A stretch of DNA of 32,812 nucleotides from Candidatus Altimarinota bacterium (GTDB lineage: Bacteria > Patescibacteriota > Gracilibacteria > BD1-5 > UBA2023), in the NCBI GenBank assembly GCA_028685185.1, contig JAQUEK010000007.1:1-32812 (forward strand), in the 5' to 3' direction. The translations under genes and the position numbers were made by a program. Of the stretch, positions 7,333-18,864 are shown in pieces. How positions within the stretch are numbered: the first letter of the stretch is position 1; each line of letters opens with the position of its first letter. The notes beneath the pieces are model-generated. The model did no database searches and was not told the DNA's origin. It saw only the letters and a program-made list of their open reading frames with translations.

Positions 7333-7433
7333 AAACCATATTGTTAGTGTTTGAAATACTTTAATATAATTTTTAAAAAAACAAAATCATTTATTTAAGA
7401 TTAACTGAATATACGGTATTAATATTACACAAA

Positions 7434-7523
7434 TAATATTAATTGCAGACCATGTTGATGCTGGCAAAAAATATAATAAGCTCGTTATATAAGAAATGAG
7501 ATACTCTGGATTATCTTTCTCCT
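7434..7523. repeat. 90-bp direct repeat, copy 1
   Basis: Matches 8120-8209 at 89 of 90 positions in the same orientation, 686 bases apart. Read on the minus strand it encodes EKDNPEYLISYITSLLYFLP plus a few residues. The only difference turns a TGG codon here into TAG in copy 2. The last 11 bases overlap the 45-bp repeat at 7513-7557. Confidence 0.9.
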
Positions 7524-7722: not shown

Positions 7723-7959
7723 ATGCTAAAGATTACAGGATCAGAAAAGATTTTCGGTGAGTACAGAAAACCTCTGTTCAGACTTGCAATAATGATTTCT
7801 ATCGGTTATCTGATAGGAGGAAAGGAGATATTAATCTTCATGCTGTTTCTTCTCATGATTCCTGTAGGATTCTGCACAATGCTTGTGCTTTCGGTGAAGC
7901 TGGATGAAAAATTCTGTAACAGGATGCCTGGAATTCATTTCGGGCAAAACATCGGATGA
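7723..7959 (+). CDS. small membrane protein in a standard-code cassette
   Basis: 78 residues with one long or two short hydrophobic segments between about residues 19 and 57 (LAIMISIGYLIGG, ILIFMLFLLMIPVGF). All glycines are GGN codons. A strong Shine-Dalgarno (GGGAGGT) lies seven bases before the ATG, whereas native genes here lack one. The gene ends TGA TAA: with UGA as Gly it gains one residue and stops at 7962, so it works under either code. It has its own promoter and its own GC-rich terminator. Codon use is unlike the neighbours. It was probably acquired from a standard-code bacterium; the function is unknown. Confidence 0.7.
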   Translation: MLKITGSEKIFGEYRKPLFRLAIMISIGYLIGGKEILIFMLFLLMIPVGFCTMLVLSVKLDEKFCNRMPGIHFGQNIG

Positions 7960-7977
7960 TAATGTTGATGGATAAGG

Positions 7978-8004
7978 AAAAGGCCCTGGAAACAGGGCCT
8001 TTTT
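7978..8004 (+). terminator. GC-rich terminator of the cassette gene
   Basis: An 8-bp perfect stem (AGGCCCTG / CAGGGCCT) with a GAAA tetraloop is followed by TTTT. It closes the cassette 15 bases after the stop codon. GC-rich stems of this kind are otherwise seen only at the end of the standard-code island (11391-11424). Confidence 0.85.
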
Positions 8005-8119: not shown

Positions 8120-8209
8120 TAATATTAATTGCAGACTATGTTGATGCTGGCAAAAAATATAATAAGCTCGTTATATAAGAAATGAGATACTCTGGATTAT
8201 CTTTCTCCT
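8120..8209. repeat. 90-bp direct repeat, copy 2
   Basis: Second copy of 7434-7523 with a single C/T difference. In minus-strand reading this difference creates the TAG stop of the small ORF at 8136. Confidence 0.9.
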
Positions 8210-8355: not shown

Positions 8356-9318
8356 CTATAAAACCAAATTGAAGAAATATCCGAGCAATATCATAAAAAA
8401 TCATACAATCCCAAAAAAGGTCAAAAGCAATTTAATCTTCATTATTTTTCTGAGTATAAGGAACTCAGGCAAACTTAATCACACTACAGCCATCATAAAT
8501 GCAAGTCAGGTTCAAAGCGGGATTCATTTTACGATAAGCGCTTGGATTATAGGTACTATGCTCGTTGCATTCGCATACATCGGAATTCAAAGCAATACTG
8601 CCATAGGCACTGCAAAAGGATTGCTTTTAGTGATATATCTTTCGAAGAATCAGGTTGGCACAAATCCGTGAATAAGTCATCAAACAGCAACTCAAAGAAG
8701 AATATAAGGCATTATCTTCCAGATAAGGGAAAAACTATCTTTGATGACCTGATTAAGAAATGTTCCCAATTCTATCTTTTCTTTCTCTGTTTCATTTAGC
8801 ACAGATCCTTTCTTCCATATGAATTCTGCAACCTGAGATTCCATATTAAGTTTTCATATGATCCATCATCATACGATTCAAAGCAGCATTCAGGAAACTA
8901 AATATACAACAGTTACTTTCCATCAGAACAGTCAAATGAACAATGCAACCGCAACCTCATTGATAAGCGGAGATGTAATCAGAAATGTGAATGTTATTCA
9001 CATCGGGATTCATGCTTTAAGAAAACCTACGAACATAGGAATGCTTGAGCATGTACAAAATGGTGTAACTGCTCAGAATAAAGCTGATAAAAAGTAATCG
9101 AATCAATAGAATCTGTTTCTGGCTAAAAAATCCCTTATCTTCTCTATGGGAAGAAAATGGTTTATTAGAGTCATGATATGGACTATAAGAACAAGAAGTA
9201 GGAATATCTTGATTCCATCATATATGAAGAAATTAATAGCTTCTCAAAGATGAGAACCGTTTAATTGCAACCAGGTATATGTTATATGGTCAGCAATCGT
9301 TTGTATCCAGTCAAACAT
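8356..9318 (-). CDS. ArsP/DUF318-type permease
   Basis: 320 residues, polytopic, with the two-fold permease pattern of the UPF0718/ArsP family. The N-terminal half contains TPFCTCSSIP near residue 85, the Cys-x-Cys element linked to arsenical export in ArsP, followed by GITFTFLITSPLINE. The C-terminal half repeats the fold with FAVPMAVLLGIPMYANATSI and FMMAVVGLSLPEFLILRK. ArsP proteins export trivalent organoarsenicals, and other family members have unknown substrates. It is the third gene of an arsR-led operon, 23 bases after the thioredoxin-like gene. About 20 UGA glycines are present. Several plus-strand open frames across this region are only its antisense shadows. Confidence 0.88.
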
Positions 9319-9341
9319 GGCATCTTATTTTAATGATTATA

Positions 9342-9638
9342 CTAGCATTTCCCTCCACAAGAGCATCAGCATGAGCTTTTAGAAGCATCATTATTATCCG
9401 TTGCATTTCAGTTCAATATTCCAACTATCTCATCTACACTTAAAACCTTTCAAAAACTCATGACTTTTCCATCTACTACGAATCATGGATTAGATAGGAT
9501 ATCATATTCCATTATCTCAGCGATGTCTGTAACTTTGGTGACATCAGCTTTTATTCAGGCTTTATCAAGAGCAAGATGGGTATTTATCTCTAAAATCTTG
9601 CAATTCGGACAACCTGTACCTAATATCTTTATTTCCAT
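9342..9638 (-). CDS. small thioredoxin-fold redox protein
   Basis: 98 residues. CPNC at residues 10-13 follows a beta strand (MEIKILGTG), and the cis-Pro region SNPGFVVDGK matches the small redox-active disulfide proteins of the TM0996/MTH895 type, which are often encoded beside DUF318 permeases. The C-terminal tail SCGCSCGGKC is an extra Cys cluster that could bind thiophilic metal or arsenic; this is inference. It sits 14 bases after arsR and 23 bases before the permease. The expected role is to reduce or carry the arsenical substrate for the permease. Confidence 0.85.
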
Positions 9639-9652
9639 AAATATAATTTTTA

Positions 9653-9937
9653 TTAAATATTAAAAAGCAGTTTTATATTGATTTTGATCTTTTCATACAT
9701 CTCCTGATCGATCGAATAAAAAACCTTCGTTCAGTCTTTTCTGGATTTCAGGATTCCAGCCCTTCTTAATATGGAAACATGATGTGAAACCATATTCTGT
9801 TTCATACTGAGTCTTTCTATGATCTGACATATGCAAAGCTCTTTTTCCCTTAACATGATGAATATATTCAATTTATTTGGTTCTCAGAGCAGATTTAAAA
9901 CATCAGCCGTCAATTCCAAATCCATATTGTTTTCCAT
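9653..9937 (-). CDS. arsR: ArsR/SmtB-family repressor
   Basis: 94 residues, with a winged helix-turn-helix of the ArsR type: LLGEPNKLNIFIMLREKELCICQIIERL, then the recognition helix MVSHHVSILRRAGILKSRKDG and the wing TKVFYS. Cys35 and Cys37 in the ELCIC motif form the usual As(III) site in helix alpha-3. It is the first gene of the operon and should repress its own transcription until arsenical is bound. A perfect palindrome overlaps its promoter 40 bases upstream. The ATG at 9937 was chosen; a second at 9925 is possible. Confidence 0.92.
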
Positions 9938-9976
9938 TCTATAGTATAAAATATTAATATCTAAACATCTACATAC

Positions 9977-9993
9977 TTCGATATAGTATCGAA
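9977..9993. promoter_or_regulatory. probable ArsR operator
   Basis: The perfect inverted repeat TTCGATATAGTATCGAA (7-bp arms, 3-bp spacer) overlaps the -10 region of the arsR promoter. Its size and position fit an ArsR-type operator. Confidence 0.7.
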
Positions 9994-10010
9994 ACATAAG
10001 TTTAAGTCAA
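9983..10010 (-). promoter_or_regulatory. promoter of the ars operon
   Basis: On the minus strand, TTGACT (10010-10005) and TACTAT (9988-9983) are 16 bases apart. The operator covers the -10 element, so bound repressor would block RNA polymerase. Confidence 0.55.
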
Positions 10011-11268: not shown

Positions 11269-11390
11269 ATTCTTTAATTTAATTTTATTGTAATATAATA
11301 TTCAGTTTTAAATCAAGTTCAATTATAAAAATACATTTGATGATATCATCCGGAATATTCAAATATTGAATTATACGGATTTTTACAAAG

Positions 11391-11424
11391 AAAAGGCCCC
11401 GGGATAAAATCCCCGGGGCCCTTA
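11391..11424 (-). terminator. GC-rich terminator of the island
   Basis: A stem of about 11 bp (GGCCCCGGGAT / ATCCCCGGGGCC with one bulged base) and a short AAA loop, with CCTTTTCTTT after it on the minus strand. It follows the 96-residue gene by about 20 bases. Confidence 0.8.
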
Positions 11425-11443
11425 ATTTAACCGGCTCTCCTTT

Positions 11444-11734
11444 TTAGCAGCCGGCAGTTTTGCGTAACAGTTTGCATTCTCCTGTAGCGCTGTCATACTT
11501 CACACGGACCTCTTCTCCTGTATTTATGCGATGGTCCTTGAACTTATCGACCGTTAAGGGATCATTTATCTTTAAGGTTAACTGTTTCCCTGATTTATTC
11601 TTGATCACGACAGTTGCTGTGGCGCCGGAAACCTTTATATCTTCAACGGTTCCGACATCCTTGAGTTCAGCTGCTGTTGCTACGCCATAGGCGAGTAAAA
11701 CGGTTACAATGGCTGTAAGTATCATTCTTTTCAT
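11444..11734 (-). CDS. small periplasmic protein, unknown
   Basis: 96 residues with a clear signal peptide (MKRMILTAIVTVLLAYGVATA, cleavage before AEL). The mature part, about 75 residues, looks like a small beta-barrel: VGTVEDIKVSGATATVVIKN, a conserved-looking INTGEEVRVKYD, and a Cys pair (GEC near residue 86 and the final Cys). No UGA is used for its glycines. The Shine-Dalgarno AAAGGAG lies eight bases before the ATG. It ends in TAA and is followed by a GC-rich terminator. It is 119 bases downstream of the chemotaxis receptor and may be a separate unit. Style suggests a Gram-negative donor; the function is unknown. Confidence 0.8.
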   Translation of the reverse strand: MKRMILTAIVTVLLAYGVATAAELKDVGTVEDIKVSGATATVVIKNKSGKQLTLKINDPLTVDKFKDHRINTGEEVRVKYDSATGECKLLRKTAGC

Positions 11735-11853
11735 GTGGTATTCTCCTTTTGTTTTCTGATTTAATGGTTGACGGTTAACTATCTTTTATTCAAGCCAAAA
11801 TTTTTTTATTCTGTTTTTATTTACCTCCTTTCTTACCCATTTTAATGGATAGA

Positions 11854-13482
11854 TTATACTTTGAATTGTGAAACCAGCTCTGATAAGCTTCTGCTGGCAT
11901 CAGACATGGATATTGCGGAAGCATTGGTCTGATTTGCACCACTTGCTGCTTCCGAAATAACAGATGTTACAGACTGAATATTGGACGATATCTCATTTGT
12001 CGTTGCAGTCTGCTCCTCCGCAGCGGTTGCGATCTGATTCACCTGCTGATCCAGTTCAGAAACTTCGGCAAGGATCTGGTTCAAAACCTCTGTAACCTTA
12101 TTGAATTCCTGAGAACCTGAGTCGAACTTTGCAGATGTTTCCGTCATGTCTTTTACTGCAGTTTCAGTTTCCTTCTGTATGCCGCGGATCAATTCTGAGA
12201 TTTCTTTTGTCGCGGCTGATGTTCGGGCAGCAAGTGCTCTGACTTCATCAGCGACAACGGCGAAGCCTCTACCTTGTTCACCTGCACGGGCAGCCTCTAT
12301 GGCCGCATTAAGTGCAAGAAGATTGGTCTGATCGGCTATATCTTCAATTGTGCCGATTATCTGTCCGATCTGATCACTCCTTTCTCCAAGTCTCTTCACA
12401 TTATTCACAGAACCTCTGACCATTTCGGTCATCTGATTCATCATGGCAAGAGAATTCTCTGCACATCTAACACCAGAATTGGCAGCATCGCTTGACCTTT
12501 TCGAACCTTCAGCCGCCATATGACAGTTGGTTGCAATGTCATTGGAAGTCGCTGACATCTCTTCAACAGCAGTTGAAATGCTCATGGTCTGGCCCTGTGC
12601 CTGTTCTGTGCTGAATCTGATTGTCTCGGAAACCGATTCAAGGTTTTGCGCTATCTCAGATGCATCATCTGCATTTCTCTTTACCGATCTTATCATGTTC
12701 TGAAGCTTTGCATTAAAATCATTGAAATACTTTGCTATCTTGCCGATTTCATCATTTCTTGAATCGTCAAGCCTGGAAGTCAAATCACCTTCTCCTTCTG
12801 CTATATCCTTGATCATTTCAAGGAATTTCGCCAAAGGTCTTGTAATGCTCAATGAAATCCAAGCCGAAAGAAGCAAAATTATGATTCCGGTTATAAGACC
12901 AAAAATTATATTCTGCATAAAAACGACTTTTTTGAGCTTCAGGTAATTGTCATTTGCGGATTTTGCATCCTTTACAGCTCTCTCTTCAATGCTCCTTATG
13001 CTGCTTCTGATTCTGCTTACATTTGACTGCAACATCACGGAATTATCATTTACATCCTCATTTATGATGTTTTTCGGTATTTCCTTAAGTAAAGTCCTTA
13101 AGTCCCCATCCAGAATGGATACGAAATCATCAAAATTCTTCTTTGCATCAGCAAGTTTCTTCTTTTCTTCGGTATTCGAAAATTTCTCGACTTCAGAAAA
13201 AAGTTCTGTGCTTCTCTTTTTAATTTTGGGTATTTCCATATCGAGAGTTGCGAATGCCCTATCTGTTATAAAATTTGAAGCAACCATATTGAGCTGATCA
13301 CCGATGTGAGATGCTTCCTGAGCTACCTGTGCATTCTTCATTGTCTGATAGACGATGTGCTGATAATCCCCCAGTTTATTGTTCTGAAATAGATTGATGG
13401 CATTAAGTATGCTGCCGAAAATCACGATAACAGACGTCAGCAGGAAAAGCTTTTGTTTGATGGTGAAAGATATTTTTTTCAT
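11854..13482 (-). CDS. methyl-accepting chemotaxis protein
   Basis: 542 residues. TM1 lies at about 12-32, followed by a four-helix-bundle sensor of about 155 residues, TM2 at about 190-212, and a HAMP domain at about 212-264 ([23 protein letters not shown]). The long coiled coil has its hairpin tip near 387-405 ([18 protein letters not shown]). There is no C-terminal CheR-binding pentapeptide. Receptors of this kind signal through CheW/CheA to a motor, and none of these genes is in the window. About 25 glycines, all GGN, and zero UGA. Shine-Dalgarno AAAGGAG before the ATG. It ends in TAA. The start of the upstream small gene's transcript suggests co-transcription (27-base gap). Confidence 0.95.
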
Positions 13483-13509
13483 TGGTTTTTCTCCTTTGAG
13501 AATCTTTCG

Positions 13510-13782
13510 TTATAAGGTTTCGTAATATACCCTGACTTCATCCGATGTTGCAAATCTTGCTCTCGATGCTCTTGGACAGTACTTATCTTTCTTTACTTCT
13601 TCAAAATAAATTCCTTCCAAAAAAACCAAAGACTTTTCTTTCGGGTAATCCAACTCCATCCAAATGCTACATGACTTTTTAAATGAAACTGGTTGTTCAT
13701 AATTCTTACATCTTACGAAACCATAATAATCTGACCCGAATTTCTTAAAGCACAAAAAAACGCCCACTGCAGATACAGACAA
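13510..13782 (-). CDS. small unknown protein, first gene of the island
   Basis: 90 residues from a TTG start at 13782, chosen because AGGAGG (13796-13791) lies eight bases upstream. The in-frame GTG at 13791 overlaps that site and is unlikely. A short hydrophobic start (VSAVGVFLCF) is followed by a soluble part with four cysteines (VRCKNYE, KKSCSIW, DKYCPRA). Glycines are GGN only and the stop is TAA. It lies 27 bases upstream of the chemotaxis receptor. No family is recognised. Confidence 0.6.
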   Translation of the reverse strand: MSVSAVGVFLCFKKFGSDYYGFVRCKNYEQPVSFKKSCSIWMELDYPKEKSLVFLEGIYFEEVKKDKYCPRASRARFATSDEVRVYYETL

Positions 13783-13903
13783 ACAAACCACCTCCTCTCA
13801 AAATATTATTTTTGCGACGATTCAGAATCTTTTGATCCCTCCTTTTTTATTTATTTTATCTCTCATAAAAATATATTATTATCTTTTGACGTAAAATCGA
13901 TAA

Positions 13904-17880: not shown

Positions 17881-18864
17881 ATGCTTACAAGAAAAGATTT
17901 CATTTCTGATATACCAGTAAAATGGTGCGCTGGCTGCTGAAATTTCATAATCCTGTCACAGCTGCAGAATACATTCGCGAACATATGAATCCCGAAAGAG
18001 AATATAGTCGTAGTATCTGGAATATGATGCGCATGAAGATTGCCATATTATATGGATACCTACTGATTCCATACAATCCACTGAAGAGCTCCGACTATTG
18101 CCACATGAATAAAGCTGACCAAACCTGAATTACAGACTTGGGTACTGACAGGTGATTGAGACGGGTTATCTATAGGATGAAATCATCTTTATCATGCAAT
18201 GAGGAAAAACATCTGACTCAAGATAGTGATGTTGAATAACCAGATATATGCACTCACAAAATGACAGGTATCTCCTACCTCCCAAGTATGATCAGTCACA
18301 AAAACCACACCGCTAGGTTCTATAGATAACCCTATTAATCCGATCAAATTCGCGATATGAGCAGAATGTGCCTTTGTCGCAAGATCCATAGATACTGAAA
18401 TATCTCTGACTCAGGAAATATTAGACAGGGCTGTGAAATCCGATTCAACCGTTTTCATTGAAATACTGCAGAAATGTGTAACATTTGAAGTCAGCGGAGT
18501 GAATCAAATAAGAGACAGAGAATTGAAGGAAGAGCTTATATTGAGGATAAGAAATTGAGAGCCACTGATATATTGAAAAAACAAGGATAAATGAATTGTA
18601 ATCGAAAACTTCAAGCCTAAAATCATCAGCTTTAACCCAGAAAACATACCTGAAAACATCGTGATATATGATGAAACAAATGATGAACTTGCTTATATTA
18701 TAAGCAATCTGAATTACCCGGAATTCCCTATCCCTGTCTGAATATTCAAAACTTCAAACAGAACATCATATGAGAAAAACTACAATGATGAGCTTAAAAG
18801 AAATAATATAAAGGATAAAAGCCTAAAAGAAATACTTTATGATTATGAAGTTATTGATATATAG
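17881..18864 (+). CDS. korB: 2-oxoacid:ferredoxin oxidoreductase, beta subunit
   Basis: 327 residues. The KorB N-terminal Cys motif (VKWCAGCGNF) and a further Cys in SGIGCAGR bind the 4Fe-4S cluster. The thiamine diphosphate motif GDGDGLSIGGNHLYHAMRKN is at about residues 89-110, followed by NNQIYALTKGQVSPTS. The reading frame is the clearest test of the code: the middle Gly of GDGDG and the Gly of CAGCG are UGA. It is the electron-output subunit, and the two-cluster ferredoxin at 28848 is a candidate acceptor. It stops five bases from the convergent Ldh2-type gene. Confidence 0.93.

What the first reader, a model, noticed from the sequence alone, without database searches (positions are those of the whole stretch)
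11391..13860. Standard-code island with a chemotaxis receptor inside a UGA=Gly chromosome
Three adjacent genes have no UGA codon although they contain many glycines, and they have strong Shine-Dalgarno sites, higher GC and a GC-rich terminator. Genes immediately on both sides are UGA-rich. All three end in TAA, so they would stay functional after transfer, whereas TGA-ended genes would not. A chemotaxis receptor without CheA/CheW or a motor is odd in such an organism. Either it is recent transfer from a standard-code donor (perhaps a host or prey), or the assembly joins two organisms.
Basis: partly seen in the sequence, partly recalled or inferred. Interest (0 to 1): 0.75.

Follow-up and report, generated by a model that had tools for sequence, protein, structure and literature searches.

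The report
Standard-code genes inside a recoded parasite
A tiny bacterium that reads the stop codon UGA as glycine carries scattered, self-contained genes, including swimming-receptor genes it cannot use, written in the ordinary genetic code; a few sit at the same places in its sister genus, which suggests they are kept readable for another cell, perhaps its host.

Summary
Window 11391-13866 carries three minus-strand genes with 0 UGA in 33 glycines, Shine-Dalgarno (SD) leaders, higher GC and a strong terminator, inside a genome where UGA is 75.5% of glycine codons. It is not a one-off. Sampling 66% of the genome (1.17 Mb) found 16 such genes at about 13 places: two chemotaxis receptors, CheW, hemerythrin, PyrE, a lytic transglycosylase and small proteins. 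The genome has no CheA, no FliG and no release factor 2. Native genes avoid SD (3/512), and 16S rRNA has an altered anti-SD across the order. A quarter of island genes use UGA as their stop. The sister genus G011 has the same class. Three genes (sec168, p54, p81) lie at orthologous positions with conserved promoters or leaders, at native-like divergence, and still have 0 UGA in 52 glycines. That argues against 'recent transfer' for those genes and against a chimera. Best explanation (confidence 0.45): units of host or donor origin kept in standard code because they are expressed in a standard-code cell, the host. Main rival (0.35): repeated uptake of host genes with rapid turnover. For the receptor island itself, recent transfer is not excluded. 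The delivery route is unknown.

The parts
11854..13482 (-). Chemotaxis receptor (MCP): two transmembrane segments, HAMP, MCP signalling domain with intact hairpin tip; 22 Gly, 0 TGA, TAA stop
   Evidence: Pfam HAMP and MCPsignal; codon counts
11444..11734 (-). 96-aa secreted protein (p96), no confident family; 59% identical homolog directly after the MCP in sister genus G011
13510..13782 (-). 90-91-aa protein of unknown family, first gene of the unit (TTG start)
13839..13846 (-). SD-like AAAAGGAG in the upstream leader; a second upstream GGAG is seen in several units
13491..13497 (-). SD AAAGGAG of the MCP gene
11743..11750 (-). SD AAAAGGAG of the 96-aa gene
11387..11428 (-). intrinsic terminator closing the unit (hairpin AAAGGCCCCGGG...CCCGGGGCCTTT, folding energy -24.9 kcal/mol)
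7723..7959 (+). Second standard-code unit in the window: 78-aa membrane protein, SD GGGAGG, 9 Gly and 0 TGA, stops at TGA (then TAA)
7975..8004 (+). terminator of the 78-aa unit (AAAAGGCCCTGGAAACAGGGCCTTTTT)
7434..7523 (+). left copy of a 90-bp direct repeat (5' part of a small native gene) flanking the 78-aa unit
   Evidence: 89/90 identical to 8120-8209
8120..8209 (+). right copy of the 90-bp direct repeat

Best explanation
The island belongs to a class of small, self-contained transcription units scattered through this Absconditabacteria genome: promoter, leader, SD, one to three genes, intrinsic terminator. They are written for a cell that uses UGA as stop and SD-led initiation, whereas the resident chromosome uses UGA for glycine, has no RF2, hardly uses SD and has an altered anti-SD. 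SHOWN: the two gene classes differ in code, initiation signals, stop codons and GC; some units are inherited by descent between two genera without being recoded. INFERRED: they are kept in standard code by selection because their products are made in a standard-code cell, most likely the bacterium on which the parasite lives. There a chemotaxis receptor, CheW or the outer-membrane protein MlaA would have partners, while the parasite has no CheA or flagellar motor. Units are added from host-like DNA and lost over time. UNKNOWN: whether DNA or transcripts reach the host, and by what route.
For: (1) 193 glycines in 16 G000 unit genes and 80 in nine G011 unit genes, 0 TGA, against 75.5% and 64% in native genes. 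(2) SD at -18..-5 in 3/512, 1/420, 1/105 and 0/213 native ORFs of four genomes, against almost all unit genes. All 23 16S tails read in the order have a changed anti-SD (GGACUAUCUCC.. or a close variant instead of GGAUCACCUCC). (3) UGA is the stop in 4/16 (G000) and 5/17 (G011) unit genes. In SLT, PilZ and p67 the terminator comes before any TAA/TAG, and in p74 no TAA/TAG was found within 400 nt. G000 has RF1 only. Orthologs CheW and p81 swap TAA and TGA. (4) Same address in sister genera: DnaJ - sec168 - p54 - next native gene, and p81 immediately beside the gene starting MKNLVIVESPA (topA-like). Conserved 5' and 3' regions score z=32 and 30 for sec168, 7 for p54 and 6 for p81, against -1.4 for one native control. 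Identities are 41%, 24% and 29%; native median 59%. G000 and G011 are sisters (support 1.0). (5) FliG and CheA not found; receptors without CheA recur across the order in standard code.
Against: No delivery route or expression data. Only three genes (two loci) are shown to be vertical, and two of them are small and weakly similar (p54 24%, p81 29%). Of eight assessable sites, five units are lineage-specific, one site carries different cargo and only two share cargo, which also fits turnover of acquired DNA. The island itself is not at the same place in G011. The most common SD form, GGAGA, also pairs with the parasite's own altered anti-SD. Some receptors in the order are recoded with UGA (L016: 47 TGA, no SD), so receptors can be adopted by the parasite.
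Confidence: 0.45

Rival explanations
1. Repeated, mostly recent uptake of host or prey DNA by competence, with fast loss. Islands lack UGA only because they are young; chemotaxis genes appear because hosts have many.
For: ComEC is present, in native code. DNA uptake from hosts and 126 acquired genes are proposed for Vampirococcus (PMC8080830). GC1/2/3 look unameliorated. Five of eight assessable sites are lineage-specific. Receptors in other genomes vary in domain architecture.
Against: sec168, p54 and p81 are at orthologous sites with conserved flanks yet lack UGA. All detected units have intact genes, most with their own promoter and terminator, which random fragments would not give. Three chemotaxis genes in about 24 is unlikely at a 1% background (P about 0.002; both the 24 and the 1% are my assumptions). 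The same families (MCP-p96, CheW, sec168) recur in both genera and, for p96 and sec168, nowhere else in the order.
Confidence: 0.35
2. The genes are native and expressed in the parasite as an SD-dependent, UGA-free regulon (for example strongly or stage-specifically expressed).
For: The altered anti-SD UAUCUCCUUU pairs with the frequent AAAGGAGA form. UGA-poor highly expressed genes exist in another genome, G037.
Against: UGA is used as stop in about a quarter of them although RF2 is absent. Their GC differs from native genes. No full-length UGA-free native gene of comparable glycine content turned up in the G000 census.
Confidence: 0.1
3. Cargo of a dual-code phage or other mobile element that also infects the standard-code host.
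For: Code-11-compatible phages are predicted for Absconditabacteria (PMC10746230).
Against: No integrase or phage genes were seen beside the three window genes, and the identified products of the other units are not phage genes; units are dispersed and some are vertical. In that paper, prophages of this group use the alternative code.
Confidence: 0.07
4. Assembly or binning chimera.
For: The genomes are incomplete assemblies; read coverage was not available.
Against: Many internal short units in several contigs; syntenic homologs in an independent genome.
Confidence: 0.03

Closest known systems
Horizontally acquired genes in Absconditabacteria (Vampirococcus lugosii, PMC8080830)
   Same: small epibiotic parasites with UGA=Gly, competence genes and many acquired genes
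   Different: those are described as ordinary HGT; no standard-code, SD-led, syntenically conserved class was found described in the papers read
Code-11-compatible phages of Gracilibacteria/Absconditabacteria (PMC10746230)
   Same: genes free of in-frame UGA, readable in both codes, linked to parasite and standard-code hosts
   Different: whole phage genomes that rely on stops other than UGA; here dispersed chromosomal units, a quarter with UGA stops
Agrobacterium T-DNA (analogy from general knowledge)
   Same: works like: genes carried by one organism with the expression signals of another
   Different: no border sequences, relaxase or transfer system shown here; bacterial rather than plant signals
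Methyl-accepting chemotaxis proteins (Pfam PF00015/PF00672)
   Same: HAMP and signalling domain complete
   Different: no CheA or motor in the carrier; standard code inside a UGA=Gly genome

Membership tests
Methyl-accepting chemotaxis protein | MCP signalling domain above cut-off, with HAMP | tested here: met
   PF00015 168.5 bits (cut-off 34.6), PF00672 46.4 bits (cut-off 25)
Methyl-accepting chemotaxis protein | CheA kinase and a motor in the same cell | tested here: not met
   only one CheW-domain hit in the whole genome (CheW itself), no FliG
Recently transferred island | foreign codon use, GC and signals | tested here: met
Recently transferred island | absent from the orthologous place in relatives | tested here: inconclusive
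   MCP island: G011 has a different standard-code unit upstream of the ApbE ortholog; sec168, p54 and p81 are present in both
Recently transferred island | near-identical donor gene in a standard-code genome | tested here: inconclusive
   MCP N-terminal part: no relative found by short-pattern scan; PyrE: best two 42% and 41%; receptors under 60% identity in plasmids
Dual-code phage or prophage | phage genes or integrase next to the unit | tested here: not met
   Pfam matches of the three genes and several flanking genes: ApbE, ArsR, thioredoxin, permease and others
Host-directed gene set (T-DNA-like) | expression signals and code of the recipient | tested here: met
   standard code, UGA stops and SD, against SD-less, RF2-less native translation; the actual recipient was not identified
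Host-directed gene set (T-DNA-like) | transfer machinery and expression in the recipient | not tested
   needs a consortium experiment; transfer genes were not searched

The most novel reading that the evidence does not exclude
The parasite keeps, by descent, a set of genes in its host's genetic code with the host's initiation and stop signals and delivers them, as DNA or transcripts, for expression in the host, including receptors that could alter host movement.
Probability: 0.35. Interest if true: 0.95.

Novelty: categorically new. Interest (0 to 1): 0.8.

Why it matters
A change of code is often thought to isolate a genome. Here two sets of genes, one in each code, sit in one chromosome, and a few of the minority set are kept that way across genera. 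If they work in the host, it would be a nucleic-acid way for one bacterium to control another, and the code would mark which genes are for whom. If they do not, the genome still offers a built-in clock (UGA gain, SD loss) for dating gene uptake in parasites.

Tried and rejected
IS or target-duplication mechanism: only the 78-aa unit has a long flanking repeat; the other islands have none beyond chance-like short matches. A universal second SD or leader motif: seen in several units, not all. Over-representation of AAGGAGG-type words genome-wide: not above expectation. Testing receptor enrichment in G037: its native UGA use (42%) is too low and at least one contig looks foreign, so not used.

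Full report
CHECK. The window is one whole contig (C5) of a 1.17 Mb, 8-contig genome rated 100% complete. Read with UGA=Gly, its genes use UGA for most glycines. The three genes at 11444-13782 hold 33 glycines and no UGA, each with an SD and, at the end, a -24.9 kcal/mol terminator. A second, unreported unit sits at 7723-7959; it ends in TGA and is flanked by a 90-bp direct repeat of a native gene start.

A CLASS, NOT A SINGLE ISLAND. A whole-genome search finds a second UGA-free receptor (C3) and one lone CheW (C4); no CheA and no FliG. In 769 kb of sampled sequence (66%) I list 16 standard-code genes at about 13 places: MCP1-p96-p91, MCP2, CheW, hemerythrin, PyrE, lytic transglycosylase, two DnaJ-zinc-finger-like proteins (one with a CFI-box) and small proteins. 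Together 193 glycines, 0 UGA; native share 75.5%. The first list used the SD as a criterion, but the codon-only scan returned mostly the same genes.

DIFFERENT TRANSLATION SIGNALS. Native ORFs almost never have an SD: 3/512 in this genome, 1/420, 1/105 and 0/213 in three relatives, with a separate test showing depletion. The 16S tails of G000 and 22 relatives read GGACUAUCUCC.. or close variants instead of GGAUCACCUCC. The only release factor found scores below the RF2 cut-off, carries the RF1-type PxT motif and is itself full of UGA. About a quarter of unit genes nevertheless stop at UGA. In SLT, PilZ and p67 the terminator comes before any TAA/TAG, and p74 shows none within 400 nt, so a UGA=Gly cell could not finish these proteins. 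Receptors elsewhere in the order are mostly UGA-free, and most of the UGA-poor receptor ORFs checked are SD-led by the motif used; the one UGA-rich receptor (G065, 47 UGA) has no SD. That one shows what an adopted gene looks like.

INHERITED BY DESCENT. DnaE places genus g12 (G011) as sister of this genus (support 1.0); native orthologs are 59% identical at the median. G011 has its own standard-code units: MCP-p96-p91b-CheW, PilZ, MlaA, Crp-like and small proteins. Orthologs: CheW about 50-55%, p96 59%, sec168 41%. Two loci lie at the same address in both. First, DnaJ, then sec168, then p54 on the other strand, then the same next native gene (G011 has one extra native gene between). Second, p81 beside the gene starting MKNLVIVESPA. 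Promoters and flanks align far above shuffled sequence for sec168 (z about 31) and moderately for p54 (7) and p81 (6); one native intergenic control gives -1.4. These genes hold 26 and 26 glycines, none UGA; under native usage the chance is about 1e-27. Upstream of the ApbE ortholog both genomes have a unit, but with different genes. Five other units are lineage-specific (SLT, p64, ZnF263 in G000; tm101, p95 in G011).

EXPLANATION. Some units are old and have stayed in standard code, so lack of time is not enough. The simplest constraint is that they are translated in a standard-code, SD-using, RF2-containing cell. Known hosts of this family are Gammaproteobacteria (PMC13059738, PMC8080830), in which CheW, receptors, PilZ and MlaA would have partners. 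How DNA or RNA gets there is not known. For the receptor island alone I cannot tell an old unit from a recent one: MCP-p96 exists in both genera but at different places.

CAUTIONS. p54 and p81 are short and weakly similar; the case rests most on sec168. GC differs between G000 and G011 units, which fits either host-like codon use or different donors. The GGAGA form of the SD also fits the parasite's own anti-SD. Donors were not identified. Enrichment of chemotaxis genes (P about 0.002) assumes a 1% background and 24 units. I took 66% of G000, about 56% of G011 and smaller parts of G012 and G037, so counts are lower bounds.

Noticed in passing
L039:1-106 and 22 relatives: 16S rRNA of the whole order has an altered anti-Shine-Dalgarno (GGACUAUCUCC or UCUCU instead of GGAUCACCUCC), together with near-absence of SD in native genes.
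   Followed up: partly
window 7434-7523 and 8120-8209: 90-bp direct repeat of a native small gene's start flanks the 78-aa standard-code unit; one copy is truncated by it.
   Followed up: partly
L063 about 18585-18671 and L079 about 7414-7497: Upstream of sec168 a consensus promoter is followed at once by a conserved terminator-like hairpin; possible small RNA or attenuator.
   Followed up: partly
family f1, DnaE loci L124-L149: UGA use varies greatly within one family (57 to 0 in DnaE), so some genera barely use the reassigned codon.
   Followed up: no
L016:1492-3147 (G065): A chemotaxis receptor fully recoded with 47 UGA and no SD, in an order where CheA/CheW are almost absent.
   Followed up: partly
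L199:5814-6728 (G011): MlaA-like outer-membrane lipoprotein gene in standard code in a Patescibacteria genome (identified by eye, not by a family search).
   Followed up: no
L093 and L122: Whole short contigs in G011 and G037 are standard-code; likely contamination or plasmids of other bacteria.
   Followed up: no
L014:537-2106 (G031): PAS-receptor gene split by an apparent frameshift relative to its intact relative in L017.
   Followed up: no
window 8356-9997: ArsR-thioredoxin-permease cluster (ArsP-like) in native code beside ApbE.
   Followed up: no
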